Positions 11,610 through 26,870 of a stretch of DNA of 64,000 nt are shown here, piece after piece (positions within the stretch are counted from its first letter, which is position 1; the number at the start of each line of letters is the position of its first letter). The notes beneath the pieces were generated by a model that was not told the DNA's origin, did not search any database, and worked only from the letters and a program-made list of their open reading frames with translations. A program made the position numbers and the translations under genes. Origin of the DNA: Noviherbaspirillum sedimenti (GTDB lineage: Bacteria; Pseudomonadota; Gammaproteobacteria; Burkholderiales; Burkholderiaceae_D); the NCBI RefSeq assembly GCF_003590835.1, contig NZ_QYUQ01000002.1, forward strand, positions 3,100,001-3,164,000, written 5' to 3'.

Positions 11610-12533
11610 ATGACCGGAATCGATGTTCACCTTCTTGCTATTTTTAATGCGATCTACAAAAGCCGGAGCGTAAGCGGTGCTGCCCAGGCACTACGACTTA
11701 GCCAACCAACGGTCAGCGTTGCGCTGTCAAAACTCCGGAGTCATTTCGGCGATCAATTGTTCGTACGCACCTCATCAGGGATGGCGCCCACGCCGTTCGC
11801 CGAGGAGCTGGTGCAGCCCGTGCTCACGGTGATCGAGGCGCTCGATACGGTTCTCGGCCGACGACACGAATTTAATCCGGCCTCTTCGGACCGCACATTT
11901 GCGATCTGCATGACGGATACCAGTCAGGTTGTGCTACTGCCAGGCCTACTGAAAAGACTGCGGGCGGTAGCGCCGGGTATCCGCATCCGTGTCGTCTCGA
12001 TTCCTAATGATCTCGCGCGGCAGATGGAAGGTGGCGACATTGACCTTGCCCTCGGTTCATTTCCCCAGTTGGAAGTTGGCGTTTATCAACAGGTTTTGTT
12101 TTTGCAGAATTTCGTCTGCATGGCCAGCAAGGACCACCCGCGTATCGCCGGTACACTGACACTCGAGCAATTCGAAGCCGAAAATCACGCGACGATCGGC
12201 TCCACTGGCGCGGCGCCACAGATCATTGATCACGAAATCGCCCGCCAGGGAATTTTTCGACGTACTGTGCTGGAAATCCCGAATTTCTTCGGCGCTGTCT
12301 CCGTGGTCGAACATACAGACCTGATCGTGACTATCCCGGAACGACTGAGTTTTGTCCTGCAAGGCAGAGGGGCATATCAAGTGTTGCCTGTGCCGTTTCC
12401 CCTACCGGGATATGAAGTCAAGCAACTATGGCATCAGCGCTATCACAACGACCCGGGCGTTCGATGGCTGCGCGGCGTAATCTCCGAATTGCTTTCAGAC
12501 ACGGAAGACCGTTCTCTCCAGACTGATGCCTGA
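11610..12533 (+). CDS. LysR-family transcriptional regulator of the gentisate cluster
   Basis: A 307-residue regulator. Residues 1-62 form the winged helix-turn-helix (DVHLLAIFNAIYKSRSVSGAAQALRLSQPTVSVALSKLR), followed by the periplasmic-binding-like effector domain beginning near SSDRTFAICMTDT. It resembles the NagR/DntR/NahR subgroup. The start is the ATG after AGGAAA. The frame stays open for a further 417 codons upstream, but this is antisense to the GC-rich dioxygenase and is not coding. It is divergent from and probably controls the gentisate operon in response to an aromatic acid. Confidence 0.9.
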   Translation: MTGIDVHLLAIFNAIYKSRSVSGAAQALRLSQPTVSVALSKLRSHFGDQLFVRTSSGMAPTPFAEELVQPVLTVIEALDTVLGRRHEFNPASSDRTFAICMTDTSQVVLLPGLLKRLRAVAPGIRIRVVSIPNDLARQMEGGDIDLALGSFPQLEVGVYQQVLFLQNFVCMASKDHPRIAGTLTLEQFEAENHATIGSTGAAPQIIDHEIARQGIFRRTVLEIPNFFGAVSVVEHTDLIVTIPERLSFVLQGRGAYQVLPVPFPLPGYEVKQLWHQRYHNDPGVRWLRGVISELLSDTEDRSLQTDA

Positions 12534-13228
12534 CAAGGAGCGGTACTGACGCTAGTCCGATCCGCGTGTGGAAAATAAACTCACATCAGGTCCGAAGGCG
12601 CTGTCGACATATGGATCAAGCCGAGAAGATAAAAGGCGGCGCATCTTTCCGGGTATCCTGGCAATTTTCTCGTGGCCGCGTAGAACAGATTAGGCTTTAG
12701 CTAATTTAATCAGCCTCGTGCTCAAATCTGACCAAAGGTCAAAAACTGCTAATTTGCGAAATTGCCCGAAAATCCATGGGCACAATTTGGCACAGCGTGG
12801 GCACAGACAAATCTAGTCAGTGCTCACCCTCACTGTGGCTTCGGAGTGCAAGAATTTTGCTGGGTATAAACAGCAGTTGAATTTACGGCAAAAGTGCTTA
12901 ATCGGCTAACTCATTGATTATTTTTGTCTTTCATTCTTTTGCTTCGTGACCACAAAACAACCATTCACACCGATTATGTTTAACTAGTCACACTAGCTGG
13001 CACAAGAAACTCAACTGAAACGCCAACTATATGACTATTAACCGAATCAATTAAACCACAAATTTCTTGCAAAACAAAAAATTTTTAGTTAAATTATTTC
13101 CACCCTGAGCTGGCAGGGCTTCGCCAACCTAGCCTAAATTTGCAGTCTTGCACGAACTTGTGCTTCGCTGCCTTGGTTCTTGAAACCAGATCTATATGCC
13201 TCGTGCAAATCAGCATGAGGCCGCAGGA

Positions 13229-13264
13229 GAAAAGTCGAGTCGCCTGACTCCCTTTTCATTTTTT
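13229..13264 (+). terminator. Terminator-like hairpin inside the leader (possible attenuator)
   Basis: GAAAAG and GAGTC pair with CTTTTC and GACTC around a GCCT loop, and a T-rich tract follows at 13259-13264. It lies 200 bp upstream of the first recombinase-like gene in the same orientation. It could end transcripts entering from the left, or act as an attenuator if the promoter lies further upstream. Confidence 0.5.
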
Positions 13265-13376
13265 CCTTTCTTTCTGCCCTTCCCGGAATTTTCGCGAACT
13301 TTAGTCTAAACATCTAGGCTAGCCATTCGTTCGCCTGGCATTTCGCCAATCTCCGCCTGCTTTGCCAGGCCCGCTT

Positions 13377-13460
13377 CCTTTTCGGTTGCGCTAGCTGTCG
13401 TTCGGCAGCCTAACGCCGGTAGTCCGGCATTCGTCGTTCTCATCACTTAACCGAAAAGGA
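13377..13460 (+). promoter_or_regulatory. Branched RNA-like structure covering the ribosome-binding site
   Basis: An 11-bp perfect inverted repeat, CCTTTTCGGTT (13377-13387) and AACCGAAAAGG (13449-13459), encloses two further hairpins, at 13394-13409 (GCTGTC / GGCAGC with one G-U pair) and 13415-13428 (GCCGG-TAGT-CCGGC). The right arm contains the AAGGA Shine-Dalgarno 5 nt before the start codon at 13466, so the folded messenger would block translation. No known riboswitch family was recognised. Confidence 0.5.
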
Positions 13461-13465
13461 CTCAT

Positions 13466-15511
13466 ATGCGACAGTTTCACCCTTCTCTGCACACAAGCAT
13501 TCCCGCAACAGCAACTGCATTCATCACAGCATCCGACAAAGATCGGATCATCCGCATCCTGACGGTTCTCGGTGCATCAAAAGGTGCGCCGCTGGTGGGC
13601 AGCGTGCTGACTCTGTGCAGGTCTGCTCTTGAAACATTTAGCCGCAATTTGCCATTCCACTCAGAGCAGTTGACAGAACTGAACGATTTTCTTGCCCGCG
13701 TCACGCCAATTTTGGCGCTGACGCACGACGATTTGGATCCTGACCTGGCAATGCAGGGAATAAAAACGGAATTCCCTGGGTGGAGCGCATTGTGCAGCCT
13801 ACAGGCAACCTCGGTGCCAGAAAATGTACTCGAGTATCTCGGTGGCGAAATTGCCCACTGCGCAGTATCAGGAGGGAACCTCAGGGAGTCATCCATCAAA
13901 ATTTTGAAGAGTGCAGCAAAGCACCTAAAAACCTCGTTTGTCCTTCCAGAGGAAATCCATACCAAGTTGCAGCGCAAAACTTTTGAAGCAATACGAAAAC
14001 ACCGTCCCAAGGGTTGGACCGCCGACGAGAATCTAGAACGACAACATTTTTCAGGCTATTACCGCAACCATATTTTCAGTGAAATAAACTTCGCAAGATC
14101 CGAGGATCGCAAAGCGACCCAGAACCTTGCAATGCAAACCCCATCCGATTTTTTTGCCAGCACGCGGCTCCTTCGACGCGACGTCGAGCAAGGAGACATG
14201 GCAGCGCTCTTTCTATGCCTAGATCTATTGGTCGGCGTTCCACCAGGAATGTCTCGCAAAGTACCGATACTGCTTCCGGAGATATCTGATTGGGTGATCG
14301 TTATTGACGTTGTCGCAGGCATCATCAAAACAGATTTCTCGACCATCATTGCACGCGCCAAAGCGCCGCTGGCAGGCTGCATACCATCGAACTTCATTGC
14401 CTGCCGCCCACTTCCAATATTTTTGGCAGAGGCGCTTCGGCAAGCGTATATGAATAACTCAAGAGCGCAGACGCTAGGCGATCTAGACAGCGAGCAGCAT
14501 TTATTTGCCAATAAAAACCGCACCCACCATTACAACCCACACTCGAACATCATTCCCAGCCGTTCGAGGCTGATTGCGGCCCGCGGCGCAATCGCCTTAC
14601 AAGCGGGGGTGAATCGCGCTGCCGCAGCGCACATCGTTGCGGATTTTCAATTGATCGGAAATGCCCAGAATCATTACATCGTTATAAGTCGGGAGGAAAT
14701 TTCTCTGGGGGCGGCCAAATTCTACGACCACATCGGTTGGGGCGCTCCAGTCCCCTTGGAAGCTGGGCCAGCGACCGGTTCAGTAATTATGCCCGAACGG
14801 CAAACCATCATGCGTCGTCATGCAAACTTGGCCGCACAAGTCTCTGACACACATCCCGGGAAAAAATACTCGATCCTGGGGTTGGCAACGTATCATGCAA
14901 ATTACGCCAATCTTTGTGGTGCCACGCTCGAATTAATGACCGCGGCGCGCGCAACCAATGTACTTCGTTTCACAGCAGCGACATTTCCTTCCGGGGCGAG
15001 CTATACCAGCATTCTTGACAAAAAAGTAGGACTGCTGGACGGTCATTCGCCTGTTCCGATTTCACCATTTCTGGCCGAACAGGTACGTCTCTGGCTCGCG
15101 CATTGCCGCTGCCTTGACCAGCGCTTGGCGCGTAAAAATTGGTTAACGACTCACCCCGTCCGCCAGCACATTCAACGCATCTTCACAGGAGAAGCGGTTC
15201 CGCTGCTGTTTCACTTTCAGGAACAGCAACTCGAATTTATCGGTTCGCACCATATCGAGCAGACATTGCCTCCCGAACTTCGGCACAAGGGCGACGGCGC
15301 AAGGCATTTTTGGGAAAACACCCTACGAGTGGCTGGCCTATCTTCCCCGGATATCAATCGCTTCATGCGCCACGAAACGATTGGATTAGAAAATTTTTCG
15401 TCGACCTCGGACGGGACACTCGCTGACGCGTTTGCGCGCATTACATCAGTGCAGCAAAAGACACTGCTTGAGCTCGGCATTTTCCCTGTTATTGGCCTGG
15501 CAAAGAGGTAA
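13466..15511 (+). CDS. Large tyrosine-recombinase-like protein, catalytically degenerate
   Basis: A 681-residue protein. Residues 1-480 show no domain I recognise. Residues about 485-655 resemble the catalytic half of tyrosine recombinases: LELMTAARATNVLRF with an Arg at 495, ARHFWENTLRVAGL with Arg613-His614, and DINRFMRHE with His636. The HxxR histidine is replaced (DGAR), and the nucleophile position after His636 holds Phe644 (ENFSS) with no Tyr nearby, so cleavage activity looks lost. A Shine-Dalgarno AAGGA precedes the ATG within a hairpin. It is the first gene of a three-gene operon; the next starts 4 bp after its stop. It is probably a structural partner of the second recombinase. The call is inferred from motifs only. 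Confidence 0.6.
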   Translation: MRQFHPSLHTSIPATATAFITASDKDRIIRILTVLGASKGAPLVGSVLTLCRSALETFSRNLPFHSEQLTELNDFLARVTPILALTHDDLDPDLAMQGIKTEFPGWSALCSLQATSVPENVLEYLGGEIAHCAVSGGNLRESSIKILKSAAKHLKTSFVLPEEIHTKLQRKTFEAIRKHRPKGWTADENLERQHFSGYYRNHIFSEINFARSEDRKATQNLAMQTPSDFFASTRLLRRDVEQGDMAALFLCLDLLVGVPPGMSRKVPILLPEISDWVIVIDVVAGIIKTDFSTIIARAKAPLAGCIPSNFIACRPLPIFLAEALRQAYMNNSRAQTLGDLDSEQHLFANKNRTHHYNPHSNIIPSRSRLIAARGAIALQAGVNRAAAAHIVADFQLIGNAQNHYIVISREEISLGAAKFYDHIGWGAPVPLEAGPATGSVIMPERQTIMRRHANLAAQVSDTHPGKKYSILGLATYHANYANLCGATLELMTAARATNVLRFTAATFPSGASYTSILDKKVGLLDGHSPVPISPFLAEQVRLWLAHCRCLDQRLARKNWLTTHPVRQHIQRIFTGEAVPLLFHFQEQQLEFIGSHHIEQTLPPELRHKGDGARHFWENTLRVAGLSSPDINRFMRHETIGLENFSSTSDGTLADAFARITSVQQKTLLELGIFPVIGLAKR

Positions 15512-15515
15512 CCCG

Positions 15516-18263
15516 ATGGCAACGCAATCTTCTATCAAAATAATTGCCCACGAGGGGGGACGCAAGCATTTATCTCCGACAATCGGGGCTGGCGAGCGAG
15601 CTGCCAGAGTTGCTTCCTTTCAGAAACAGTTGATAAAAGGCTTCGTATTTCATGATGACCCGGAGGCAAAGCTGATCGCGCTTGCTATAACAACCGAGGC
15701 CCTCGTCAATCTATCGGAACTCAAATTATTCTTGAGTGCAGTAAATAACGTATATGCGATTGAAAGCAAGCATTACGTCAGTTGGATAGCCGAAGATCGG
15801 CGAGTTGACCGTCGCGAAATTTGCACATTTACAAGGATCACGATAGCGCAATGCAACGCTGGCACTAATTGGCATGATGCATTGAAGCGTTTCAGTCAAA
15901 AATTGCGCCAAATGCATTACCTGCCAAGGCTACGCTCAGATCCCGATGAGTATCTAACGGAATTTTCGCAAGATGCGGAGGCTTATTATTTCAGCATCCT
16001 TCCCAATCCGCTTTTCTGTCATGTAAAGCGAGTTGCTTCAATCGCCGCACTACCGGACAGTGCATGGGCGAGATATGCATCGCACAGGCCTCTGGCATCG
16101 AAGAAAGTATCGGACGAGTTGGTATCTACAGAGAGCGTGGAATCAACTGTTCTCGACGCTTTGTACGAAAACGCACTTCCGGCAAGCGGCTCCTGGTTCA
16201 TCCCCTTGTTGACTGCCGCAACCGGCCAGGTCGCCCAATTATCGAAACACACGGGGCGACAGGCCGTCCTGCAGGCACTAATTGACCTTGCACCGCAATG
16301 CAAGGTCGCCGGTCCGATTGCCGCCCTGCTGCTGGGATGGACCTGGCATATGACAACCTGTGGCACTCCGCAAACCCAGAGCGGGAATCCCAAAACTGTG
16401 CGCGCATACGTTTCTTCCGTCTCTGGCGTCTTGTACTCGGAATTAGCTGCGTCCAAAACGCATCCTCTGGATCTTGAAATGACAGAGCTTCAGAATATTT
16501 ACGCAAAAATCATGACGCAAGGTGTCTCCGGCACCGTCACCAGAGCAGCACTGCACGCGTTTCATACCTATCTAGTGCAGGTGCATGACTTTCTTCCGCT
16601 TGTGGTTCCACTTTCTGAAACGGAAGATCCGCTCCCCCGCGCTAATCTGTTTTGGGAGCACGAAGTTTCTCATCTGCGTAATCTGTTATTGCATAGCCAT
16701 GACAACGCCGACAAACGGCTTCTTCAGCAGATCCGTGTGCTATTCGAATTGGGGCATGCACTGCACTTTCGAATCGGGGAAGCATTGCATTTGAGGCTCT
16801 CAAACATCTGCGTGATCGAGGGTGTGATTGAAGTTGAAGTGGCGCCTAAGCGGAACGACGTCGGATTAAAAACAAAAAGCTCCCGCAGGAAAATTGCAGT
16901 TACGTGCCCCATCGCAGCGGAACATTTGTTGGCATGGGTGGCACGACGCACACTTGAAGGTGCGATGCCGGACGAATTTCTTTTTGGCGACCCCCATCGT
17001 GCCGGCAGTCTTTACCGGGTTGGCGCCACCCGAACAAGCATCAACAAGCTATTAAAAATTGTTACTGGTGATGATTCAGCCAAGTTCCACATGCTACGGC
17101 ATGGAATTTCATTTCAAATGTTGGATGTTTTATGCAACCACGGCCCACTTGGCGAAATTAACGCAATTGATATCCTGTCGAGCCGCCTCGGACATGCATC
17201 TAGTCAAACCATTTTTAGTTGGTATTTCCATCTCCCGGAGCGCCCGCTTCGCACGGCAATTGACCGTGCATCACGCAGAGTGGATCTTAACAGTGCGGAT
17301 GTTGCCCGCTGGACCAACATTAAAGAAGCGACCATACGCAAAAAGTTGCAACGAAAGACTTATGACAAGGATACTCATGAAAAGGATACGTTACATTGGG
17401 AAATACTTGATGCCTATGGCAGCACATTGGATTCAACACCCGTCACGACACGCTTCGAAACCACCGTCCCTCCCGACGTATTCACTCTTGCGACCGCCCG
17501 GCCGCTCGACTTCAATGTCATAGAAAATGTTCTGCGCGATATTGCCGACGGACGCCCAGTGGAGTCAGTGTGCCTGCGCAATGCACTTCCTCAAACCACC
17601 GTTGAAAGAATAGCCAGTTCGGCGATTCAGGTTGGCGGGCCGATATTCCTCAACCGAAGTATCTTGCGAGCGCTCGGCACAGACAGCCCCGTGAAAATTC
17701 TGATGGAACAGTTTCAACTCGGACGATTTCCGGATATGAATCGGTGTAGTAGCAGGAAATTTTCGCAAATCCGAAAATTCCTCCTGAGTCGGTCGGCGCA
17801 CCAATCGGTTGCCCCCGCCCTCGTAGGGTGGTCACACCTCTGGGAGCAGGGTTACCTCTGTCTGGACAACATTTCAGATTTCAAAGCAATTGCGATTTTT
17901 CTGCACCACTGTGAGATTTCGCCATCCAGTCTCTTAGTCCGTGTCAGCACATTGGACGGATTTGCACTAACACAGAGACCTCATCCTCTTCGGGCATTCG
18001 ACAACCCTGTTTTTCAAGCTACGGCTGATGTCGACCAAGTGATGAATAACATCTTCGGAGTATTGCCCCGCATTCAGATTGTTGATGAGCGCAGCGGTCG
18101 TCCGAAACGCTACCTAATTATTACCAGCCAGTCTCCCGATCTGGCCGAAAGTGCTTCGTCCGCGGCGAGCTCAATGGCGGGATTTCATGCACTCATGCTA
18201 ATCGCAATGGTTTCTCAATCGATTACAGAATCAGATTCATCTTTTCAGCAGGATCGAGAATGA
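15516..18263 (+). CDS. Large tyrosine recombinase with complete catalytic residues
   Basis: A 915-residue protein. The catalytic domain sits in the middle, about residues 410-590: HFRIGEALHLRLSNI with Arg419, KTKSSRRKI with Lys454, FHMLRHGISF with His525 and Arg528, SRLGHASSQTIFSWYFH with His560 and the presumed nucleophile Tyr570. About 400 residues precede it and about 325 follow it, far more than in phage integrases (300-450 residues in total). The start at 15516 is chosen because GAGG lies 8 nt upstream and it follows the preceding stop by 4 bp; the open frame 28 codons upstream overlaps the first gene. It is likely a DNA strand-exchange enzyme that moves or maintains the island, acting with its two neighbours. 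Confidence 0.7.
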   Translation: MATQSSIKIIAHEGGRKHLSPTIGAGERAARVASFQKQLIKGFVFHDDPEAKLIALAITTEALVNLSELKLFLSAVNNVYAIESKHYVSWIAEDRRVDRREICTFTRITIAQCNAGTNWHDALKRFSQKLRQMHYLPRLRSDPDEYLTEFSQDAEAYYFSILPNPLFCHVKRVASIAALPDSAWARYASHRPLASKKVSDELVSTESVESTVLDALYENALPASGSWFIPLLTAATGQVAQLSKHTGRQAVLQALIDLAPQCKVAGPIAALLLGWTWHMTTCGTPQTQSGNPKTVRAYVSSVSGVLYSELAASKTHPLDLEMTELQNIYAKIMTQGVSGTVTRAALHAFHTYLVQVHDFLPLVVPLSETEDPLPRANLFWEHEVSHLRNLLLHSHDNADKRLLQQIRVLFELGHALHFRIGEALHLRLSNICVIEGVIEVEVAPKRNDVGLKTKSSRRKIAVTCPIAAEHLLAWVARRTLEGAMPDEFLFGDPHRAGSLYRVGATRTSINKLLKIVTGDDSAKFHMLRHGISFQMLDVLCNHGPLGEINAIDILSSRLGHASSQTIFSWYFHLPERPLRTAIDRASRRVDLNSADVARWTNIKEATIRKKLQRKTYDKDTHEKDTLHWEILDAYGSTLDSTPVTTRFETTVPPDVFTLATARPLDFNVIENVLRDIADGRPVESVCLRNALPQTTVERIASSAIQVGGPIFLNRSILRALGTDSPVKILMEQFQLGRFPDMNRCSSRKFSQIRKFLLSRSAHQSVAPALVGWSHLWEQGYLCLDNISDFKAIAIFLHHCEISPSSLLVRVSTLDGFALTQRPHPLRAFDNPVFQATADVDQVMNNIFGVLPRIQIVDERSGRPKRYLIITSQSPDLAESASSAASSMAGFHALMLIAMVSQSITESDSSFQQDRE

Positions 18264-19060
18264 CCCCATCAACCTGGGTTGCCGATATTACGCTATTCCC
18301 GACTGGAATCATTTCAATCGACGAAGAACGCCTGAAAATAGCCTCGCTAAAGAACTTACTTGAAGTACTGATTTTTCCATGTGGGCTCTATGATCGTCTT
18401 AAATTTTTCACTTTTGACGAGAGTGGATTTACTTGGCTTCGTCTCAATCTGCCAGCACCAATACAACAAGAATTGCGACTCGCGGCTGACGAAGATAAGT
18501 GGTTGCACGGGCAATACGTTGAAGACCTTATGGAGAGAGAAAAACAGCAAATCCGCCGATCTCTTTTCGGGTCCATGGAATTGGCAGGCAAATTTCTTTA
18601 TCGGACAAATCCAGGGAATATTATCAAGCAAATAGATCAATCTGCTTATGATGCAGTCGAGCGAAAAAAACTTCGGGCAATCCATGCTGCGTGCAGCATG
18701 TTCCCAAAAAGAAAAATATTTTTTAGAGATTCGGCTGGCAATCACACGCTAGAATTTGAGCAGTTCCGACGCTTTGCCACAAACCCAGTCACTATCGCAA
18801 TTTCCGCAAAAGTTTTACAAGTAGGGCGAAATCATGCAGATCTGATCAATGTCGTGTCGATTGAGGGCGGACGACTTTCTGGAGACAAAAATGGGAAAAA
18901 AAGAATGCGATGGAATTTTCAGCGCTTTCCTGAATTAGGAGAAATTCTTTACAGCCATGTAAAAAATGGTGAAAAGATTGATTTGAAAGTTCGCGAAACC
19001 AGATGCGCACTGACGTTGGGCCTCGTGCAATTGGAATTTAATAGTCGAATGGAAGATTAG
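18260..19060 (+). CDS. Unknown protein, third gene of the recombinase operon
   Basis: A 266-residue hydrophilic, basic protein with no signal peptide or membrane segment and no family I recognise. Its ATG overlaps the stop of the large recombinase (ATGA), which implies translational coupling and a joint role. It contains a charged helix-prone stretch (LMEREKQQIRRSLFGSMELAGKFLY) around residues 90-115 and a Lys/Arg-rich patch (GDKNGKKRMRWNFQRF) near residues 215-230 that could contact DNA. By position it is comparable to the small non-recombinase third gene of trio elements such as Tn554 TnpC or the Gmt trio, but sequence kinship cannot be judged here. Confidence 0.6.
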   Translation: MTPSTWVADITLFPTGIISIDEERLKIASLKNLLEVLIFPCGLYDRLKFFTFDESGFTWLRLNLPAPIQQELRLAADEDKWLHGQYVEDLMEREKQQIRRSLFGSMELAGKFLYRTNPGNIIKQIDQSAYDAVERKKLRAIHAACSMFPKRKIFFRDSAGNHTLEFEQFRRFATNPVTIAISAKVLQVGRNHADLINVVSIEGGRLSGDKNGKKRMRWNFQRFPELGEILYSHVKNGEKIDLKVRETRCALTLGLVQLEFNSRMED

Positions 19061-19215
19061 CACTCAAAAAAATCCGACGCTTATAACAATAGCGGCCAAA
19101 TATCCGATGGCTATTTTCCAAATCACTGTTTCTCTCCAATCAAAAATTATCGACGCCTTCAATCAGGGGGGCTTTACATAATCTACAGGGAGGAATCCAT
19201 AAAGCAAGGTTCACA

Positions 19216-19242
19216 AAAAGTGTCACCACTGGTGACACTTTT
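19216..19242. terminator. Palindromic bidirectional terminator or site after the recombinase operon
   Basis: A perfect 12-bp inverted repeat, AAAAGTGTCACC and GGTGACACTTTT, has a 3-bp centre. A runs on one side and T runs on the other make it suitable as a bidirectional terminator between the convergent recombinase operon and the gene at 19437-20075. The rest of 19061-19436 holds no gene. Confidence 0.5.
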
Positions 19243-19360
19243 CAGGGTATTGTGGACTGTTATATCCGCTCCTCTTCCGACCCGACAGAAAAGATAAGCT
19301 TTTACATTCAGCCATTGCGATCCATTGCGACATTTTTGTACGTTGCGATTTTTTGGCCAT

Positions 19361-19429
19361 TTTTTAGCAACGGGTGATTTTGTGGCTGATTTTTAGCAAC
19401 GTGTGATTTTGTGGCTGATTTTTAGCATT
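19361..19429. repeat. Two and a third tandem copies of a 29-bp repeat
   Basis: Units at 19361-19389 and 19390-19418 differ at one base (AACGGG versus AACGTG), and a third unit breaks off after 11 bp. Upstream, CATTGCGA, CATTGCGA and CGTTGCGA occur within 40 bp, and CGTTGC is complementary to the GCAACG of the units. Multiple terminal repeats of this style are known from IS21-family ends, so this may be a relic IS end; no transposase remains beside it. Confidence 0.6.
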
Positions 19430-19436
19430 GAAGTTG

Positions 19437-20075
19437 TCATTTGGCCGCTGCTTTCTGCTCTTTAATCCACTCATTCTTGCCATACCGATAGCCAGGAAAC
19501 TCCTTCTCCAAGGTCGTTTGCCCCACAAGCAGCCGTCGCGCCAACGAGGCAACCTGAGCCAGTTCAACCTCGTTTCTGACCTCCAGCGGAACAATCAAAC
19601 TGATCCCCGTGGCCCAATTCAAGCGTTCGCGTTTCCACGAGGCATTGACCTCCAGATCAATGCCTTCGGCAGTCAGACGTTCGCGAATTAAGCGCAATTG
19701 CTTGTAGTGTGCCTCTTGCTCAGCCGAAGGTTGGCGGGTGGTGTAGCTGACGATCTTCTTGCGCGATTTACCAACCCGCTTGTAATTCGTCGTCGTCCCA
19801 TCCAACAGCCAGTCATCCTGCGGGCCGGGACCAGCTTCAACCCAGGATTGCTCGTCAATCGCGCTGCCATAGACATGGCGCGGGTGCTGCCACCAGACGA
19901 TAATGCGACGGCCATTGAGAATGAATCCGACATCATCCCACCGCGACAAACTATCCGGCCGTGTTTCATTGTAGGAGTGTGGAACGTACAAGCCATTGTG
20001 ATTCAAGCGCCATGGATGTTTCCGATGGTATTGGCGCTGCATTCGGACAAGGAGTTCTTGTTTGTGGTTTTTCAT
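19437..20075 (-). CDS. Hypothetical protein, 212 residues
   Basis: A soluble, basic protein without signal peptide. Visible features are the N-terminus MKNHKQELLVRMQRQYHRKHPWRL, a Trp-rich centre (RRIIVWWQHPRHVYG, QDDWLLDG) and a Lys/Arg-rich tail. I do not recognise the family. It belongs to the cargo of the accessory island and converges on the recombinase operon. Confidence 0.6.
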   Translation of the reverse strand: MKNHKQELLVRMQRQYHRKHPWRLNHNGLYVPHSYNETRPDSLSRWDDVGFILNGRRIIVWWQHPRHVYGSAIDEQSWVEAGPGPQDDWLLDGTTTNYKRVGKSRKKIVSYTTRQPSAEQEAHYKQLRLIRERLTAEGIDLEVNASWKRERLNWATGISLIVPLEVRNEVELAQVASLARRLLVGQTTLEKEFPGYRYGKNEWIKEQKAAAK

Positions 20076-20099
20076 CGCAGCACCTCTGAAGGAAAAATT

Positions 20100-20545
20100 A
20101 TTGACTCAGCTTGAGCCGCAATTTTCGCTAGACGACGTCATCGATACCAATTGCGGGATCACACTGCACCAGATTTGGCAAAAACGGTCTGAACCAGTGG
20201 CCGCAATCATCGAGCGCTACCCAACTCTCCAAAACGCGATTGGACTGCCCGCAACCAGCCCTCCACTTCAACGTGCCGTGGGTAGTTCCAGATGACCTCA
20301 CACAACGCAGGCAGATTTCGCCAATCCGGCGTCAATCCGACAATCCGGGCGCCGATGTCGGTTGAAAACAGCGCCTGCAGTTCGGCGAACGATCATGTCT
20401 GCCGCCAGATACTGGAAATGACGATCTCGACCTGAGAGTAATCGTGTAGAATCATCTCGAGCTTTTCTCGATGGCAAAGTAGCTCTTCACCTTGATTACA
20501 AAATTCAGGGTGTAGCGCGCCGTCAAAATCGAGAAAGAGAATCAT
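20100..20545 (-). pseudogene. Decayed copy of the HAD-like phosphatase gene at 21020-21466
   Basis: The first 49 codons from the ATG at 20545 match the intact neighbour closely (MILFLDFDGALHPEFCNQGEELLC). A CGA codon has become TGA right after WRQT, and a +1 insertion follows near the codons for the WLR segment. Similarity to the intact gene continues past its end, so the whole gene was duplicated and then inactivated. Confidence 0.8.
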
Positions 20546-20625
20546 GCCGCAATACCGAATTCCCGTTCCACTGGCCGCATGAATTCCCAACCATACTCCT
20601 CGTCGGTTAGCCAGTGACGTGATTT
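20546..20625 (-). pseudogene. Fragment of the gene at 21550-21858, part of the same duplication
   Basis: About 80 bp match the part of the neighbour that encodes RHWLTDEEYAWKFMRPVGREF, now fused upstream of the HAD pseudogene. The rest of that gene and the spacer are missing, so the duplicate lost a segment. Confidence 0.65.
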
Positions 20626-20664
20626 CTACCGACGCCCACGTTTTCGCATCTCATCAATTTCCGC

Positions 20665-20823
20665 CTAATCGATTGTGCCCGTCCGGTTCTTTTTTACTTT
20701 CCGGATTGCGTCCGATACAAGGGCCACTGACTCATTATCATGCAGCGACATACCACGCGATCGGATCGCCGAACTCGAGTATTGACGTGAATAAATAGTG
20801 CGCTTTCTGGTTCTGCTTTTCAT
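20665..20823 (-). CDS. Possible small basic protein, 52 residues
   Basis: The open frame starts MKSRTRKRTIYSRQY and is rich in Arg, Lys and Ser. No clear Shine-Dalgarno is present and no family is recognised. It follows the small gene at 20848-20976 in the same direction. It may be chance. Confidence 0.25.
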   Translation of the reverse strand: MKSRTRKRTIYSRQYSSSAIRSRGMSLHDNESVALVSDAIRKVKKNRTGTID

Positions 20824-20847
20824 GATTGCTCGCCAACGCCATTTTTC

Positions 20848-20976
20848 TTAACTTCGATTGCGTTCCCGCTCAATCCGGCCCATCTCAATCTTGACTTGCC
20901 TGTATGCCCCGACAAGTGGCGCGAAATACAAACGCAAGCTGCTTCTGAAGATCCTTCGCACATCACATGCATTCAT
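20848..20976 (-). CDS. Small protein, 42 residues, unknown
   Basis: The ATG has a GAGGAG Shine-Dalgarno 7 nt upstream. The product starts MNACDVRRIFRSSLRLYFAP and has an aromatic/hydrophobic centre (LYFAPLVGAY) followed by a charged amphipathic tail. Similar short proteins occur in prophage or island segments of Burkholderiales as far as I recall. It lies directly downstream of the HAD gene. Confidence 0.45.
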   Translation of the reverse strand: MNACDVRRIFRSSLRLYFAPLVGAYRQVKIEMGRIERERNRS

Positions 20977-21019
20977 AACCATTCTCCTCACTAATTAATG
21001 AGAATCGCAGGACAAAACA

Positions 21020-21466
21020 TCAATGGCTGAGTTTGAACCTCAATTCAACCTCAACGACATCATTGATGCCCGTTGCCGCATCACACATCACCAAATTTTT
21101 CAAAAACGGCCTGAACCAGTAGCCGCGATCATCAAGTGCCACCCAACTCTCCCAAACACGATTAGCCTGCCGCAACCACCCTTCCACCTCCACGTGCCGT
21201 GGGTAATTCCCGATGACATCACACAACTCAGGCAGATCCCGCCAATCCGGCGTCACTCCGATAATCCGGGGGCCGATATCAGGGGAAAACAGCGCCTGCA
21301 GTTCGGAGAGCGATCGTGTCTGCCGCCAGGTACTGGAAATGACGATCTCGACCTGCGGGTAATCTCGCAGGATCGTCTCGAGTTTATCTCGACGGCAAAA
21401 TAGCTCTTCACCTTGCTTATAGAATTCAGGGTGCAGCACGCCATCAAAATCGAGAAAGAGGATCAT
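21020..21466 (-). CDS. HAD-like phosphatase domain protein
   Basis: A 148-residue protein. FLDFDGVLHPEF at residues 4-15 carries the DxD nucleophile and acid/base pair of the HAD superfamily, VISSTWRQ supplies the motif II Ser/Thr, and WVALDDRGYWF near residue 110 supplies the acidic motif IV. The short length with a minimal cap resembles the HAD domain found in RNA-repair proteins and island genes. The substrate is unknown. A decayed duplicate lies 475 bp downstream. Confidence 0.7.
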   Translation of the reverse strand: MILFLDFDGVLHPEFYKQGEELFCRRDKLETILRDYPQVEIVISSTWRQTRSLSELQALFSPDIGPRIIGVTPDWRDLPELCDVIGNYPRHVEVEGWLRQANRVWESWVALDDRGYWFRPFLKNLVMCDAATGINDVVEVELRFKLSH

Positions 21467-21549
21467 GTCGCGAGCCTAATCATTCTGTAGATGCCGCCAA
21501 TCGAATTCATTTCGCCATTCGCCTTTATTCGTCAGACTAGTTCGTTAAG

Positions 21550-21858
21550 CTAACCTCGGTCGTCATGAGAATTTCTTGTCTTTGCGTGAACCCATTCCAT
21601 TGACTGGATTCTCTGATTCGATTCATGAACAAACCGCTCAGTCTCGTCCATTGATGTGGCTGCAAGATTGGCAGCTGCTACAGCTGCATCGGCGAGTGCA
21701 TCCAACTCTGCTAACCGCTCGAAATCCGGGCTAGCGAATTCCCGTCCCACTGGCCGCATGAATTTCCATGCATATTCCTCGTCGGTTAACCAGTGACGTG
21801 ATTCATGATACGTCTTGGACATGGCGTAAATGCGATGCTTTTTCTTCCGGTGGTTCAT
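21550..21858 (-). CDS. Small hypothetical protein adjacent to the HAD gene
   Basis: A 102-residue protein with the visible motif RHWLTDEEYAWKFMRPVGREF and an Ala-rich helix (LAELDALADAAVAAANLAAT). An internal start, MSKTYHESRH at 21822, is possible. Its segment was duplicated together with the HAD gene, so the two are linked. The function is unknown. Confidence 0.55.
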   Translation of the reverse strand: MNHRKKKHRIYAMSKTYHESRHWLTDEEYAWKFMRPVGREFASPDFERLAELDALADAAVAAANLAATSMDETERFVHESNQRIQSMEWVHAKTRNSHDDRG

Positions 21859-21925
21859 GGACGATCCAGTATCGAGATTGAAGGAGTCCCTGGTTGAGAG
21901 TTTTTGGTATGCAAGAAATCACATA

Positions 21926-22429
21926 CTACTTACGCTTCTTCCACGAGTCGATATCGATTCTTGATATTCTGTTTGCAGCTTTCTGGTTTAGGTCTCTTAT
22001 CGCCAATCCAAGCGGCATGGCATCGCTTTGCCAGTCTTCCACAACGGAATCAATACCAGAGAGTTTTGTCTCCATATCTGCATGGATTTTATCGCGAAGA
22101 ATCTTTACCTCATCTTGCGTATTCATCTTCTGAATTTCTTGGGCTCGCACACTGAGCGATTGCGCTGCTTCCTTTATTACGAACCTGAATGCTGTGCGGC
22201 AATTGATGTTCTGCGTAGATTTCGCGAATTGATCAAGACCTTCCGCATCTTTTTTCTCTAGCAAAGCCTTTTTCTTTTGTACGCAAGCTCTCAAGCTTTC
22301 CAGCGATTTTTCAAAACCCAGCCCTTGATAGTATGCAATGTCGCGTACGGGCTCCGCCTTGTCGCAACCCAGCAGAAGTGCAAAGGCAAACGCCGAGACG
22401 CCCAATTTGATTTTTCTGTTTTTCGACAA
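21926..22429 (-). CDS. Putative lipoprotein, 167 residues
   Basis: An N-terminal signal with lipobox ALLLGC (Cys about residue 22) predicts a lipid-anchored periplasmic protein. The mature part is helical and charged, with YYQGLGFEKSLESLRACVQKK, a Cys-x-spaced segment that loosely recalls EexN-type entry-exclusion lipoproteins of conjugation systems. That likeness is weak, and no transfer genes are nearby. Confidence 0.6.
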   Translation of the reverse strand: MSKNRKIKLGVSAFAFALLLGCDKAEPVRDIAYYQGLGFEKSLESLRACVQKKKALLEKKDAEGLDQFAKSTQNINCRTAFRFVIKEAAQSLSVRAQEIQKMNTQDEVKILRDKIHADMETKLSGIDSVVEDWQSDAMPLGLAIRDLNQKAANRISRIDIDSWKKRK

Positions 22430-22552
22430 AATATATTCTCCCCTGAATATGGTATTGCGTTTATGGAATATGGATACTGGAAAGTCTCGCAGTTGCTTTC
22501 AGATTCGATCAGCCGTTCAAAATTCTTCGGTCATAGCAGGCATCGCAGCCCG

Positions 22553-23047
22553 CTAATTTTCCAGAATTTTTCTTTTTTCCTTCTCGAATTCTTCCTGCGT
22601 CAACAATCCTCGCTCCTTGAACGCAACCAGTTTTTCAATTGCTTCGATTCGCGAAACCGGATTACCCGGCGATTGTGGCGACTGTTCGGGATTCGCCTCC
22701 GTATATTGCGGCGCCGGATCGGACCGCTTGAGCTTGCTGGAGATCCAGCAAATCAGCCGGTACAGAAAATAGAGCTGCAGAAGCGCCAATGCCAGCTTAA
22801 AAAGCCCGCTGAAAACAGTTCCATGGCCGCCTAATGAAAGAATCACGTAAGCGAATGGGGCAATACAGATCGCGCAAAAAATTGCCATTCCAATGCGTAT
22901 CCCACCACCGGTTTCGTACATGACTGCGCCACATATATTGCATAAATGTTGGGTTTTCATGTAAGTGATGTAGCCATACCATGGCGAGTAATTCCAAAGC
23001 CTTGGATGAACATGATTTTGACAAGACGGACATGTGACTGCGGTCAT
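22553..23047 (-). CDS. Zinc-ribbon membrane protein with C-terminal SHOCT domain
   Basis: A 164-residue protein from the ATG with AAAGGAGT 8 nt upstream. Residues 5-45 have two CxxC pairs (CPSCQ and CNICG), a likely zinc ribbon. Two hydrophobic helices follow (MAIFCAICIAPFAYVILSL and LFKLALALLQLYFLYRLICW). The C-terminus IEKLVAFKERGLLTQEEFEKEKRKIL is a clear SHOCT motif. It is an inner-membrane protein; its role is unknown. Confidence 0.75.
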   Translation of the reverse strand: MTAVTCPSCQNHVHPRLWNYSPWYGYITYMKTQHLCNICGAVMYETGGGIRIGMAIFCAICIAPFAYVILSLGGHGTVFSGLFKLALALLQLYFLYRLICWISSKLKRSDPAPQYTEANPEQSPQSPGNPVSRIEAIEKLVAFKERGLLTQEEFEKEKRKILEN

Positions 23048-23174
23048 TGCTTTGACTCCTTTCATGCTTCTAACGCTCGTGACCTTTGATGATTTATCCT
23101 GCATACGCCACGTCAGACGGCGAGGTACCGGTTGACATACCCGCTAGGGCGATCCGCAAGTCTTGCCAACCCTG

Positions 23175-24185
23175 TCAGAATGCCCCTGTCGTGAATGTGA
23201 AGTTGATGTTCACTGCCGCACCGTTGTTCGTGCCTGCCGCGGTGAAACGATAGGTGGTGTTGGTCGCTAGCGGGGCATCTGGCATAAAGATGATCATCGA
23301 ACCGTCGGTGAGGCTGTTGTTCTGGTCCGTGGTACGGTCCAGACGGTTCAGCATCAGCGCGGTATTGCCACCATCTACGCGCAGATCGACCGTGGAAAAC
23401 ATCAGATTTTTCCCGTCACGCGCCTTTACGTAGACCGGGTGGCCGATTGGCTGGGTCGCTAGATTTCGACCTGCGATAGGCGCCGGAGACTCATCGTAAT
23501 AAGTTTTCGTCAAAACACCCGTTGTACCGGCGCACGGATAGGTGGCGACAACGTTCCCGGCCAAGTGCTGAGTTGAGCGAGCGTCGGTCGTCGCAACGTT
23601 GATGCTGTATACCCGGCGCAATGCGTTTGAGCCTACGCCAATGCCGATGTCGCGGTAGCCGAGCAACAGCGTTCGGCCGTGATAAGGCGCAGCAAAAAGA
23701 TCTTTGAGGTTGGTTTGGCCGAGGTCTGTGCCATAGGCAGGGAAAGAATATGCGATTCCCTCGCCCCAGGTTGTCGACGAATAACCGGCCGCGAGATTGC
23801 GGTCATAGACGTTCGCGCCGGTAAAGCCAACCGGGAACGCCACGCTGTTCTCTCCATGACCAGACGTATTATTATTGATTTGATAGTCCGCATGGGCTTG
23901 AGCGGCAATATCCAGTTTTACGTCCTGCTGCAATAGTCCGAAACCGCAAGCCAGCCGCTGGGCATTCAGGTAAGCATAACCGGCTAGTTTATCGCTGCCG
24001 ACACCATAGGTCGCTGCAGTAATACCACTGTTTTGGATCGTGCTTGCAGCGCTCGTCGTAGTGGTCGTTGTCGTAACCGTGGTATTACCAGCCGCATCGC
24101 CCCCACCACCTCCGCACGCAGCAACTAACGCGGATGTCGTCAATACAGCCATGGACGCTCGTATTGTCCGAACTCTTCTATGCAT
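23175..24185 (-). CDS. CAP/SCP-domain lipoprotein
   Basis: A 336-residue protein with a signal peptide and lipobox ALVAACGGGG, followed by a Thr-rich linker (TTVTTTTTTTS). Residues about 65-200 form a CAP (cysteine-rich secretory / SCP) domain: LNAQRLACGFGLLQQDVKLDIAAQAHADYQINN, GHGE, GENSVAF and YHGRTLLLGYRDIGIGV. The last about 110 residues look like a beta-sandwich (NTTYRFTAAGTNNGAAVNINFTFTTGAF). It is probably surface- or periplasm-exposed; its ligand is unknown. Confidence 0.8.
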   Translation of the reverse strand: MHRRVRTIRASMAVLTTSALVAACGGGGGDAAGNTTVTTTTTTTSAASTIQNSGITAATYGVGSDKLAGYAYLNAQRLACGFGLLQQDVKLDIAAQAHADYQINNNTSGHGENSVAFPVGFTGANVYDRNLAAGYSSTTWGEGIAYSFPAYGTDLGQTNLKDLFAAPYHGRTLLLGYRDIGIGVGSNALRRVYSINVATTDARSTQHLAGNVVATYPCAGTTGVLTKTYYDESPAPIAGRNLATQPIGHPVYVKARDGKNLMFSTVDLRVDGGNTALMLNRLDRTTDQNNSLTDGSMIIFMPDAPLATNTTYRFTAAGTNNGAAVNINFTFTTGAF

Positions 24186-24378
24186 AGTTACTCTCCCTGA
24201 ATTTTCTTGTTCATATTTTTAAAGGCATTTTCCGAGCCAAATCGGCGCCCTGGACATTTTGCAGAAATTCACCACTGGAGTTTATACTTAAACACCATAA
24301 GTAAATAAGGCGATAGACCTGTTTTTTATTCAATTTTTGTTAATCCGTCGTATTCTGTAACTTGGCAAGTGGCTTGCT

Positions 24379-24729
24379 TTACATACCCTCGCCGTTACGG
24401 TAACTGGACTCGCGGTAAGCAGCATTCGCGTATCGTGCCCAACACATGGTTCCGTACCGCCTGAAATAGCGGCTCATTACTTGCCTGCGGCCGATGCAGG
24501 CTGACCAATTACCCGATGCCGTCAAATACATTGCGTTCCGCGGCAGATCCAGCGCCCCCATTTCAACGATCAGATCGTCGCTGTCGTCCAGCGTGATCCG
24601 TAGTTGCTCGCGGCTCGCTCCAAATTCCGTGATGCATGTCAGGGTCCAGCTCGAATCCCCGACCAGTGGAAGTTGGAGTGCTAATTCTCGAAGGATGGGA
24701 TGTATCTGGATTACTGAGGAGTTCGTCAT
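24379..24729 (-). CDS. Hypothetical protein, 116 residues
   Basis: A soluble protein beginning MTNSSVIQIHPILRELALQLPL and ending in an Arg/Tyr-rich tail (RRQVMSRYFRRYGTMCWARYANAAYRESSY). No family is recognised. It is divergent from the helix-turn-helix regulator at 25002 and may be controlled by it. Confidence 0.5.
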   Translation of the reverse strand: MTNSSVIQIHPILRELALQLPLVGDSSWTLTCITEFGASREQLRITLDDSDDLIVEMGALDLPRNAMYLTASGNWSACIGRRQVMSRYFRRYGTMCWARYANAAYRESSYRNGEGM

Positions 24730-24937
24730 AACGATGTTCCTTTCGGGCGTTAATGCCTTACTTTCCCACAGCGCTTTTCGAATTCAAGAGGGCTTTCGAG
24801 AAAAATGTTTTGATTTTTACCCTGCATTGACGCACCGTGTCCTACCAGGACAACCTCACTTCTTGCCTATGCTGTTTTAGTTCTGATGCATTCAAGACGT
24901 ATTGATCAGTCTGTTTTTGAACGGATATTTGTCATTA

Positions 24938-24977
24938 ATTCATTATTAGTGAATAAACACGATCACTGATAGTGAAT
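24938..24977. promoter_or_regulatory. Candidate operators of the island regulator
   Basis: Two TAGTGAAT copies (24947-24954 and 24970-24977) are spaced 23 bp apart. The first is part of ATTCA-N7-TGAAT and the second of TCACT-GAT-AGTGA, both inverted repeats. They lie just upstream of the helix-turn-helix gene, which suggests autoregulation. Confidence 0.45.
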
Positions 24978-25001
24978 GTTGCAAGCGGTAATGTACGGCG
25001 C

Positions 25002-25418
25002 ATGAAATCCGCCTCCGAGAAGACTGCTGCACTGGAAAGACAAGCGTTCAGCGACCGGCTTCGGCGTGCCATTGCCGATTTTGATGAATCGCTTCTAAGT
25101 CCTACAGTCCTGGCGCGCGAGTTCAATCGTCGATCCCGCCATAGCACGATCGGCACGACGGCCGCGTACAAGTGGCTGTCCGGCGAGGCGATTCCCCAGC
25201 AAGAGAAGCTAAGTTTTCTGGCAACCTGGCTCCGTGTATCAGTGCAATGGCTGCGTTACGGCGCTGTCGCGGACGATTCTGAAGCTGGTGCCGTGGTCGG
25301 CAATAAGGAAAGGCGGCGCCAAGACAAGCTGTTGAGCGACTTCGGCGCACTAGGGGAGCGTGACAAGGCGCTGATTGAAAATCTGATTCAGGCGATGCTG
25401 CACAATCAGTCGTCCTGA
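25002..25418 (+). CDS. Helix-turn-helix transcriptional regulator
   Basis: A 138-residue protein. Residues about 12-75 (FSDRLRRAIADF, SPTVLAREFNRRSR, TTAAYKWLSGEAIPQQEKLSFLATWLRVSVQWLRYG) match the prophage-repressor-like helix-turn-helix family common in Burkholderiales; a linker and a short C-terminal helix follow. The ATG at 25002 is preferred over a GTG 30 bp upstream that would overlap the repeat operators. It probably represses itself and the divergent gene. Confidence 0.75.
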   Translation: MKSASEKTAALERQAFSDRLRRAIADFDESLLSPTVLAREFNRRSRHSTIGTTAAYKWLSGEAIPQQEKLSFLATWLRVSVQWLRYGAVADDSEAGAVVGNKERRRQDKLLSDFGALGERDKALIENLIQAMLHNQSS

Positions 25419-25474
25419 ATTCTTGCAGTGCACAATAAAATCAGCTGTCCAACTATCTCGATTGATTCTATTAC

Positions 25475-26665
25475 TTAATAATACCCAGGCCGTTTCGGCT
25501 CTGGTGCATCCAGAATCGTATCGCACACCTGCATCATCGGATCGAGCCAATCAGCCTTGGCCAGCGCCCACGCTATCCAGTCTGCGTGCTCCGGTCGAGC
25601 CCCCATATCGGTAATCAGTTTCTGTTCGCGCGCCGCTATATAGCCTCGAAGACGTGCCGCCCTTTCCCAATTGATGGCATCGGTTTCCAGCTTCTTAAAT
25701 CGCGCCAATTCGTTCTCGCGCCGCTGCACAAGATAAGCATATCGTTCCTCTCGAAGCCGACGCGCCTCTTTCTGCCGCGCTTCTTCTGCTTCTTTTGCCC
25801 TAGTCTCCTCGATCAGCGCAATGAGTCCGGTAACGATCTCTGCCATGCGCTTTTCGAGCGGCGTGCGACTTGTATCGTTCCAATTTCGTGAGGGCCACCG
25901 GCCTGCTGAAATGGTCAATATTCCGGTCGGACGATAGTCATATCCAGGGGTATGCGGATATGGCATCGCCACATCCAGCATTGACCGACTCCGATACCGC
26001 TCTTTCGCCCGCCTTTCGGCGGGCGTATCCACGTGGGTAGTACGTTCGACCCGTTCGGTGATGCTGAACGAGACGACCGTGCCATCAAGATCCAGGAGCG
26101 TTTCCTTGCGCTGCGCATCGATGCGTATCGTGACGGACTGCTTTTCAAGTTGCTTCAGCAAGGAATCGGCGATCAATAGCGCGCGGTCAAGCGATGAACT
26201 GGAAACCTGAAGATGCAACACTTCAGCCGGAGCTGCCCGAAGACCTTTCTCGTCGCTTACACCCTCCCGTTGTTTGAGCCGTTTGCCGGCAGCTTTCACC
26301 AGGGGATGGGGATCAACGAGTTCCGTCGGAACGGTGATTGCCTTTTCAAGGTCCTCTCCGTGACTGATTATTTTTTGTTTGGCGACCGTTTCCGCTGCCT
26401 TCCTTACTGGATCGACCTTGCTCAGTACCGCATCTTGGGGGCTGTTTTCCTTGAGCTTGGGTAAAGGCATCTTTTTCATGATCCGTCCCGCTTTGACTTT
26501 GGCCCAGTATCCCCGGGTCGGCAGCGGTATGCTCAGTTTCTTGCAAATCTTGGCGAGCCCTACGTCGGAAATGCCATAGCGCTTGGCGACAATCACAACG
26601 GGATCTGCCCACACCTCCTCATACAATTTTTGCCTATCCACGACAGTTTGATTGGGATTTGCCAT
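25475..26665 (-). CDS. Island-associated hypothetical protein with N-terminal helix-turn-helix
   Basis: A 396-residue protein. The N-terminus (LYEEVWADPVVIVAKRYGISDVGLAKICKKLSIPLPTRGYWAKVKAG) is a well-recognised motif of a hypothetical family found in genomic islands of Proteobacteria. The centre is mixed, and residues about 290-345 form a long charged coiled coil (ARQKEARRLREERYAYLVQRRENELARFKK). The function is not known. Confidence 0.7.
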   Translation of the reverse strand: MANPNQTVVDRQKLYEEVWADPVVIVAKRYGISDVGLAKICKKLSIPLPTRGYWAKVKAGRIMKKMPLPKLKENSPQDAVLSKVDPVRKAAETVAKQKIISHGEDLEKAITVPTELVDPHPLVKAAGKRLKQREGVSDEKGLRAAPAEVLHLQVSSSSLDRALLIADSLLKQLEKQSVTIRIDAQRKETLLDLDGTVVSFSITERVERTTHVDTPAERRAKERYRSRSMLDVAMPYPHTPGYDYRPTGILTISAGRWPSRNWNDTSRTPLEKRMAEIVTGLIALIEETRAKEAEEARQKEARRLREERYAYLVQRRENELARFKKLETDAINWERAARLRGYIAAREQKLITDMGARPEHADWIAWALAKADWLDPMMQVCDTILDAPEPKRPGYY

Positions 26666-26870
26666 AGCATTTACCGTTTAAAGTCGTTTTGGGCTGAAAA
26701 AAGAAATAGAGTGCTAGATTAATCAGCATTCCGCATCCACATCTCATAGAATTACAATTTGCGCAATATTGTTGTCGCCATATACATTAAAAGATATCAA
26801 TCAGCGATCAGGAATTCACGGAAGCTGAATTCGTCATTTCGTCAGGCTAATTACGCAAGGGGATTTATTG

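What the first reader, a model, noticed from the sequence alone, without database searches (positions are those of the whole stretch)
13466..19060. Three-gene operon with two very large tyrosine-recombinase-like proteins and an unknown partner
Genes of 681, 915 and 266 codons are joined by 4-bp gaps and an ATGA overlap, so they are one translational unit. The second protein has the full R419-K454-H525-R528-H560-Y570 set inside flanks of about 400 and 325 residues, which ordinary integrases do not have. The third has no recognisable domain. Arrangements of recombinases plus a non-recombinase partner are known (Tn554 TnpABC; the GmtY/Z/X trio that carries anti-phage cargo; RIT elements), but I cannot say this belongs to any of them. 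The genes head an island of orphan genes that includes a deaminase fragment similar to anti-phage proteins. This is the best candidate for an undescribed mobile system.
Basis: partly seen in the sequence, partly recalled or inferred. Interest (0 to 1): 0.75.

Follow-up and report, generated by a model that had tools for sequence, protein, structure and literature searches.

The report
Recombinase operon with a dead partner
Three genes read as one unit encode a large DNA-rearranging enzyme, a sister protein that looks like the same enzyme but lacks its cutting residue, and an unknown helper; relatives of the first two were found side by side, or fused into one protein, in other bacteria.

Summary
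The three genes are real and coupled: A 681 aa, 4-nt gap, B 915 aa, ATGA overlap, C 266 aa. B is a tyrosine recombinase (YR) with large extra N- and C-terminal regions. A is most likely a YR-fold protein without a nucleophile: in 20 aligned A rows the site's Arg, Arg and His are invariant, Lys is in 19, and no tyrosine is conserved; the fold itself has only weak profile support. C has no known relative. The trio keeps its order in a divergent same-genus genome (33/31/25% identity). In 19 of 19 strong-match loci examined an A lies directly before B or is fused to it (6). A 17-bp site just after C in the window recurs eight times just after C in that relative. A GMT control does not match; GInt, SE, RIT and Tn554 differ in gene content or catalytic residues; BIM kinship was not detected. 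Best reading: a site-specific recombination module in which B cuts, A is a non-cutting subunit, and C plus the downstream sites are accessory. Mobility of this copy, its ends and its cargo were not shown; no deaminase was found in the ORFs tested. New variant of the multi-subunit YR kind.

The parts
13466..15511 (+). gene A, 681 aa: YR-fold-like protein without a catalytic tyrosine (R495, K519, R613, H636 kept; Asp at the place of the box II His; Phe at H+8; Ser at H+12)
15516..18263 (+). gene B, 915 aa: tyrosine recombinase, R419 K452 R458 H525 R528 H560 Y570; N-terminal region about 1-375, sub-threshold HTH-like stretch 579-613, C-terminal region about 620-915
18260..19060 (+). gene C, 266 aa, no recognisable domain, ATGA-coupled to B, found only in the trio clade
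19182..19193 (+). TCTACAGGGAGG, 12-mer shared with the G084 array (three exact copies there)
19216..19242 (.). palindrome AAAAGTGTCACCACTGGTGACACTTTT after C
19231..19247 (+). 17-bp site GGTGACACTTTTCAGGG; 15 of 17 identical to one of the eight copies downstream of C in relative G084; only place in the 64 kb within 3 mismatches of any of those copies

Best explanation
A-B-C is a site-specific recombination module. B is the catalytic tyrosine recombinase. A is a YR-fold partner that binds DNA like a recombinase but does not cut, probably in a 1:1 complex with B on each recombination site. C and the inverted 17-bp sites just after C form an accessory or regulatory part of the same unit. Because only B has a nucleophile, an A-B pair on each site could exchange only one pair of strands; the junction would then be finished by replication or host enzymes. 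Shown here: gene order, coupling, residue pattern, pairing and fusion of A with B, and a shared site after C. Inferred: the fold of A, DNA binding by A, the complex, the single strand exchange, the role of C and of the sites, and mobility of this copy.
For: B: Pfam phage integrase 2e-8; profile matches to solved integrases and Xer proteins; residues kept: R419 20 of 20, K452 20 of 20, H525 18 of 19, R528 19 of 19, H560 19 of 19, Y570 19 of 19 (row G865 ends with its contig). A: R495, R613 and H636 20 of 20, K519 19 of 20, D or N at the box II His in 18 of 20, no conserved tyrosine (at H+8: F 9, W 5, other 6), Ser 19 and Thr 1 of 20 at H+12. YR kinship of A: the three best of nine PDB matches of the 20-row A profile are XerD, XerD and XerC-like, E 0.02-0.04, the other six are SecE chains at E above 1; A parts of two fused relatives hit Xer models themselves (E 7e-4 and 4e-4). 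Pairing: 19 of 19 loci. Trio order kept in G084. Site after C: 2 mismatches in 17, 0 of 2000 letter shuffles of the 380-bp region as good, only place within 3 mismatches in 64 kb; in G084 all seven copies with at most 1 mismatch lie in 330 bp after C.
Against: No empty site, attachment site, circle or second copy was found for this element. The direct A-B profile alignment is weak (probability 4%, E 0.0095, box I half only), and A alone hits no family. The 20 rows are not independent: window and mg7, and G865 and A. baumannii, are near-copies in A. Only one relative carries the whole trio with known DNA. In eight of nine Acinetobacter plasmid loci the pair has the same left flank, so there it may be a plasmid module. 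Most other A-B loci show no repeat array after B. The palindrome after C could be a terminator.
Confidence: 0.55

Rival explanations
1. It is a divergent member of the GMT, GInt or SE groups, i.e. an already named multi-recombinase mobile element.
For: Same style: two or more YR-type genes plus a non-YR gene in one operon; GInt and SE also contain a YR-fold protein lacking catalytic residues (GinC, Tfp; PMC5385486 part 1 of 6 and PMC10214605 passages). The protein taken as GmtZ has 908 aa.
Against: No Gmt model among the NCBIfam hits of A, B, C at E up to 1 (the presence of GmtX-type and GmtY models in the library was seen, of a GmtZ model not checked). A GmtY found with NF040693 and its two neighbours score at most 2.5 bits with the A, B and C profiles, while plasmid relatives score 57-146 bits with the B profile. 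GInt and SE have three YR-type genes plus a small one; here two. GinC lacks the first arginine, A keeps it in 20 of 20.
Confidence: 0.12
2. The A-B pair is a plasmid or chromosome maintenance recombinase (like XerC/XerD with an inactive partner), not an integrative element.
For: In Acinetobacter plasmids the operon with a small upstream gene is found in 202 records, 188 of them with at least 80% of it; of nine loci looked at, eight share the left flank and five have an annotated Y-family polymerase to the right.
Against: In one of nine the left flank changes at a sharp point 165 bp before the small gene and in two of nine the right flank changes after B; sporadic in the window's family: 2 of 294 genomes, own included.
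Confidence: 0.2
3. The trio is a decayed or domesticated remnant whose A has simply lost activity.
For: A duplicated, partly decayed gene lies downstream (20093-21469); A lacks the tyrosine.
Against: All three frames are intact; the missing tyrosine and the kept residues are shared by 20 A rows; trio order is kept at about 30% identity.
Confidence: 0.1
4. The palindromes after C are only transcription terminators and unrelated to recombination (does not exclude the main reading of A and B).
For: Strong hairpin with A/T flanks after the operon in the window (z -4.2) and a hairpin in one stretch of the G084 array (z -3.0).
Against: Eight copies in both orientations with kept sequence in G084, two of them unpaired, and 15 of 17 bases shared between elements whose proteins are about 30% identical.
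Confidence: 0.3

Closest known systems
Strand-biased circularizing integrative elements (SE: intA-tfp-intB-srap)
   Same: Coupled operon of large YR-type genes with one YR-fold protein lacking catalytic residues and an extra small protein
   Different: Three YR-type genes, two active, plus srap; here one active and one dead plus C. Sequences were not compared (PMC10214605 passages only)
GInt (ginABCD)
   Same: Operon of YR-type genes with a degenerate one and a small non-YR gene, at one end of an island
   Different: Three YR-type genes; GinC lacks the first Arg, while A keeps it and lacks the Tyr; sequences not compared (PMC5385486 part 1 of 6)
Gamma-Mobile-Trio (GmtY/Z/X)
   Same: Two YR-type genes, one of about 900 aa, plus a third gene
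   Different: No profile match of A, B or C to a GmtY and its two downstream neighbours; GmtY is 441 aa and comes first
Tn554 and actinobacterial relatives
   Same: Two adjacent YR genes, one abnormally long (611-828 aa with an N-terminal extension over 400 aa), often with a third gene
   Different: Both YRs carry a catalytic motif; the partner is about 350 aa (PMC3414803 and PMC10214605 passages); A is long and dead. Sequences not compared
BIM elements (bimA recombinase, bimB)
   Same: Two-gene module of one YR and a conserved second protein in betaproteobacteria (PMC3414803, PMC2864759 passages)
   Different: bimB is described as a putative repressor or SMC-domain protein; pMOL28, one of its carriers, is in the plasmid collection and gave no match to A, B or three relatives
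RIT elements
   Same: Three adjacent, overlapping genes
   Different: Three YRs of 315-410 aa, all with the catalytic Tyr in the archetype (PMC10214605 passage)

Membership tests
Gamma-Mobile-Trio | Gmt protein families | tested here: not met
   no Gmt model hit at E up to 1 for A, B, C or relatives; one GMT locus at background against the profiles. GmtZ and GmtX of that locus named by position only
Gamma-Mobile-Trio | two YR-type genes plus one non-YR gene in one operon | tested here: met
   (A only weakly YR-like)
GInt | three YR-type genes plus a small HLH-type gene | tested here: not met
   two YR-like genes and one 266-aa gene; definition from PMC5385486
GInt | sequence kinship with GinA-D | not tested
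   no Gin sequence was fetched
SE | intA, tfp, intB, srap in order | tested here: not met
   only two YR-like genes, the dead one first
SE | sequence kinship with Tfp and Srap | not tested
   the record asked for was not held
Tn554 | TnpA and TnpB both with catalytic motif | tested here: not met
   A has no catalytic tyrosine
RIT | three active YRs of 315-410 aa | tested here: not met
BIM | kinship with the bimA/bimB pair of pMOL28 | tested here: not met
   no Cupriavidus record in tblastn of A, B and relatives at E 1e-5; pMOL28 is held; the bim pair itself was not located
Tyrosine recombinases (B) | R-K-H-R-H-Y set in a phage-integrase domain | tested here: met
Tyrosine recombinases (A) | YR fold with R-K-H-R-H-Y set | tested here: inconclusive
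   R, K, R, H kept, box II His and Tyr not; weak profile support
Integrative mobile element | defined ends, att sites, empty site | tested here: inconclusive
   none found for the window; sharp left end in one of nine plasmid relatives; tRNA-Arg-like 3' half upstream of A in G084 without a second copy

The most novel reading that the evidence does not exclude
A-B is an unnamed, widespread class of heteromeric recombinase in which one catalytic and one permanently inactive YR-fold subunit, in some lineages fused into a single chain, enforce one-strand-only exchange, with replication completing integration. A bolder form: the Ser or Thr fixed at H+12 in all 20 A rows, beside an otherwise kept basic active site, gives A a chemistry of its own.
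Probability: 0.3. Interest if true: 0.8.

Novelty: new variant of a known kind. Interest (0 to 1): 0.6.

Why it matters
Several multi-recombinase elements (GInt, SE, Tn554, GMT) contain more recombinase-like proteins than a simple integrase needs, and why a dead one is kept is open. A two-protein version with natural A-B fusions reduces the question to one chain that can be purified and tested, and would give a name to a module now annotated only as 'site-specific integrase' plus 'hypothetical protein'.

Tried and rejected
Known-family filing: NCBIfam, Pfam, PHROGs and PADLOC on A, B, C gave integrase-type hits for B, a weak HTH and repressor match in B, and otherwise only hits I count as noise (phosphoketolase 0.044 and DUF5365 0.25 for A, a phospholipase effector 0.033 for C). 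Rfam on window 8000-34000: one sub-threshold fluoride riboswitch inside gene A, rejected.

Ends: repeats at 12400-29000, the LysR flank in the genus (no DNA match in the 5 other genomes), tRNA scans. The 11-mer TGGCTTCGGAG shared by window 12836 and the tRNA-like fragment upstream of A in G084 is at chance level (44 of 100 shuffles have at least two matches at one mismatch) and is not used. An IS21-like reading of the 29-bp repeats at 19347-19433 was only recalled; no plasmid match.

C was compared with 18 small or neighbouring proteins of other A-B loci and with the protein taken as GmtX; no relation. Number of fusion origins: two fused clades are supported, the backbone is not, so none is given. 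The idea that S648 sits at the tyrosine's place: the XerC-like alignment puts F644 there, so it is kept only as the bold reading.

Full report
What is there. Gene A (13466-15511, 681 aa), gene B (15516-18263, 915 aa) and gene C (18260-19060, 266 aa) are intact and coupled by a 4-nt gap and an ATGA overlap. B gave one match in its own genome. A LysR gene ends at 12533 upstream. Downstream come partly decayed and unrecognised genes up to a biotin-synthase-like gene at 28944-29984.

Protein B. Pfam phage integrase covers 405-573 (E 2e-8), with a sub-threshold Xre-like HTH at 579-613; PHROG integrase profiles match; the B profile matches 19 solved chains up to E 0.1, integrases and Xer proteins first, the best at 2e-9. 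Over 20 aligned B rows: R419, K452 and R458 20 of 20, H525 18 of 19, R528, H560 and Y570 19 of 19; row G865 is cut by its contig end and the Sphingobium row has G at H525. The C-terminal region aligns with that of the distant relatives.

Protein A. No family hit of note. Over 20 aligned A rows: G438, R495, R613 and H636 invariant, K519 19, D518 18, D or N at the box II His 18; no conserved tyrosine after H636 (three rows have one at H+11, others at scattered places); Ser at H+12 in 19 and Thr in 1. The 20-row profile has nine PDB matches up to E 10: XerD, a XerD fusion and a XerC-like protein at 0.02-0.04, then six SecE chains above 1; the alignment shown, to XerD, is in register at box I and box II. 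The 8-row profile had one match, the XerC-like protein, at 0.049. A parts of the fused proteins of G550 and G725 match Xer models (7e-4, 4e-4). The direct A-B profile alignment is weak. I read A as a YR-fold protein that cannot cut; the fold is not proven.

Protein C. No hit in Pfam, NCBIfam or PHROGs; best PADLOC 0.033 and best PDB 0.06, taken as noise. Besides itself: two proteins in the protein database, one beside A-B in G084 at 25%, and none in the other 273 of 274 class genomes searched.

Relatives. The protein searches gave, besides the query's own entries, two B (81%, 81%), two A (88%, 27%) and two C (89%, 79%) proteins. Equal contig lengths suggest the whole trio on a 27,082-base contig and B-C on a 6,318-base one, an inference. 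The A and B searches scored only 7999 candidates. Pattern scans of genome contigs and of viral contigs and tblastn of A and B in plasmids found nothing. Same family: 2 of 294 genomes, own included. G084, same genus, has A-B-C in order with a 4-nt A/B and a 1-nt B/C overlap. Same order: 6 of 300, own included. Same class: 209 of 369 reach E 1e-3 with the wider B profile, but I kept only the eight places in seven other genomes that score over 50 bits in a frame of at least 700 aa; the others look like ordinary Xer-type integrases and were dropped. At most two candidates per genome were scored there. Through relatives, plasmids gave Acinetobacter, Sphingobium, Ketogulonicigenium and single records of other genera; I looked at four types and left the Aeromonas record unanalysed.

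Pairing and fusion. In 19 of 19 loci examined an A lies directly before B or is fused to it. Separate (13): window, G084, G418, G546, G638, G694 (C2), G672, G608, G826, G865, Ketogulonicigenium, A. baumannii, Sphingobium; A is short in G672, G865 and Sphingobium. Fused (6): G550, G414, G537, G694 (C4), A. lwoffii and G725, where only the last part of A is in frame with B. The A profile built without the fused proteins still finds the fused N-terminal halves of G550, G414 and G537 (E 1e-9 to 1e-10 in a set of local ORFs). Trees put the trio clade together (100/100); fused clades G414+G537 and G694+A. lwoffii are supported, deeper forks are not.

Sites after C. G084 has a 17-bp sequence CCCTGTAGANNCTCACC: seven copies with at most one mismatch, all at contig positions 121357-121686, after C and nowhere else in that genome; three one-mismatch hits in the window's genome and one in G062 lie elsewhere. 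An eighth copy in the array has three mismatches. I first noticed similarity by eye in both loci, then defined the motif from G084 copies alone. In the 64-kb window the only place within three mismatches of any of the eight copies is 19231-19247, two mismatches, 171 bp after C; 0 of 2000 letter shuffles of the 380-bp region and 1 of 168 window tiles do as well. Across six genus genomes the window 17-mer occurs with at most two mismatches only there and in the G084 array; by my own estimate a few such hits would be expected in that much DNA, so the position and not the count is the evidence. Of 13 other A-B loci most show no excess of repeats after B; Ketogulonicigenium does.

Mobility. For nine Acinetobacter plasmid loci the module start is sharp in one contrast: L076 has other DNA left of ATAACAGAAAACTAA, 165 bp before the small gene; L068 and L078 differ on the right after B. 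No second copy of that end was found in the fetched stretches. Upstream of A in G084 lies a 46-bp stretch like the 3' half of a tRNA-Arg(CCG) gene (named by eye), with no second copy in six genus genomes at up to three mismatches; the host gene with the same acceptor arm is tRNA-Arg(ACG). These are leads, not proof.

Comparison with the known. A GmtY located with NF040693 in G694, with its two downstream neighbours taken as GmtZ and GmtX by position, is the control: at most 2.5 bits with the A, B and C profiles, against 57-146 bits for four plasmid B relatives. It is one locus. Papers seen: PMC5385486, part 1 of 6; PMC10214605, PMC3414803, PMC8138268 and PMC2864759, passages. PMC3414803 already describes YRs of 611-828 aa with long N-terminal extensions beside a shorter YR, and BIM pairs, so long recombinases and two-gene modules are not new in themselves. 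No listing or passage that I saw describes an active-dead YR pair or its fusion (listings); this covers open-licence papers alone, and the GMT paper was not among the listings.

Mechanism. With A and B bound side by side on a site, B alone can cut. Two such sites could make one strand exchange, as in other one-strand systems (recalled), and replication would finish the job. Natural A-B fusions fit a fixed 1:1 ratio. This step is inference.

Noticed in passing
window 20093-20549 and 21015-21469: Duplication of a HAD_SAK_2-domain gene, one intact (21020-21466, PF18143 E 1e-27) and one decayed copy (77-87% identical).
   Followed up: partly
window 19347-19433: Three tandem 29-bp repeats between the trio and the next gene; no match in the plasmid collection.
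   Followed up: partly
window 28312-28803: Transposase fragment (rve_3, E 6e-10) just before the biotin-synthase-like gene; possible scar near a right border.
   Followed up: no
window 12779-12805: Three GGCACA repeats in 27 bp upstream of gene A, possible integrase arm sites (reading by eye).
   Followed up: no
G084 C10, about 730 bp upstream of A (in L004): 46-bp tRNA-Arg(CCG)-like 3' half, unlike the host's tRNA-Arg(ACG) with the same acceptor arm.
   Followed up: partly
L012 1605-3595: Two genes directly before the fused A-B gene of G537 look by eye like an AbiE-type pair (HTH protein and nucleotidyltransferase-like protein); a long hairpin lies at 1491-1574.
   Followed up: no
L003 14943-15965: NA37 nucleoid-associated gene downstream of the G084 trio (PF04245 E 4e-70).
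   Followed up: no
L068, L072-L079: The related module is common in Acinetobacter plasmids (202 records); in the loci seen it lies near Fic, HipA, type I restriction, DUF4011 or Y-family polymerase genes.
   Followed up: partly
L071 12968-13714: The Ketogulonicigenium operon has a 248-aa gene overlapping the end of B, in the place of C, but unrelated in sequence.
   Followed up: yes
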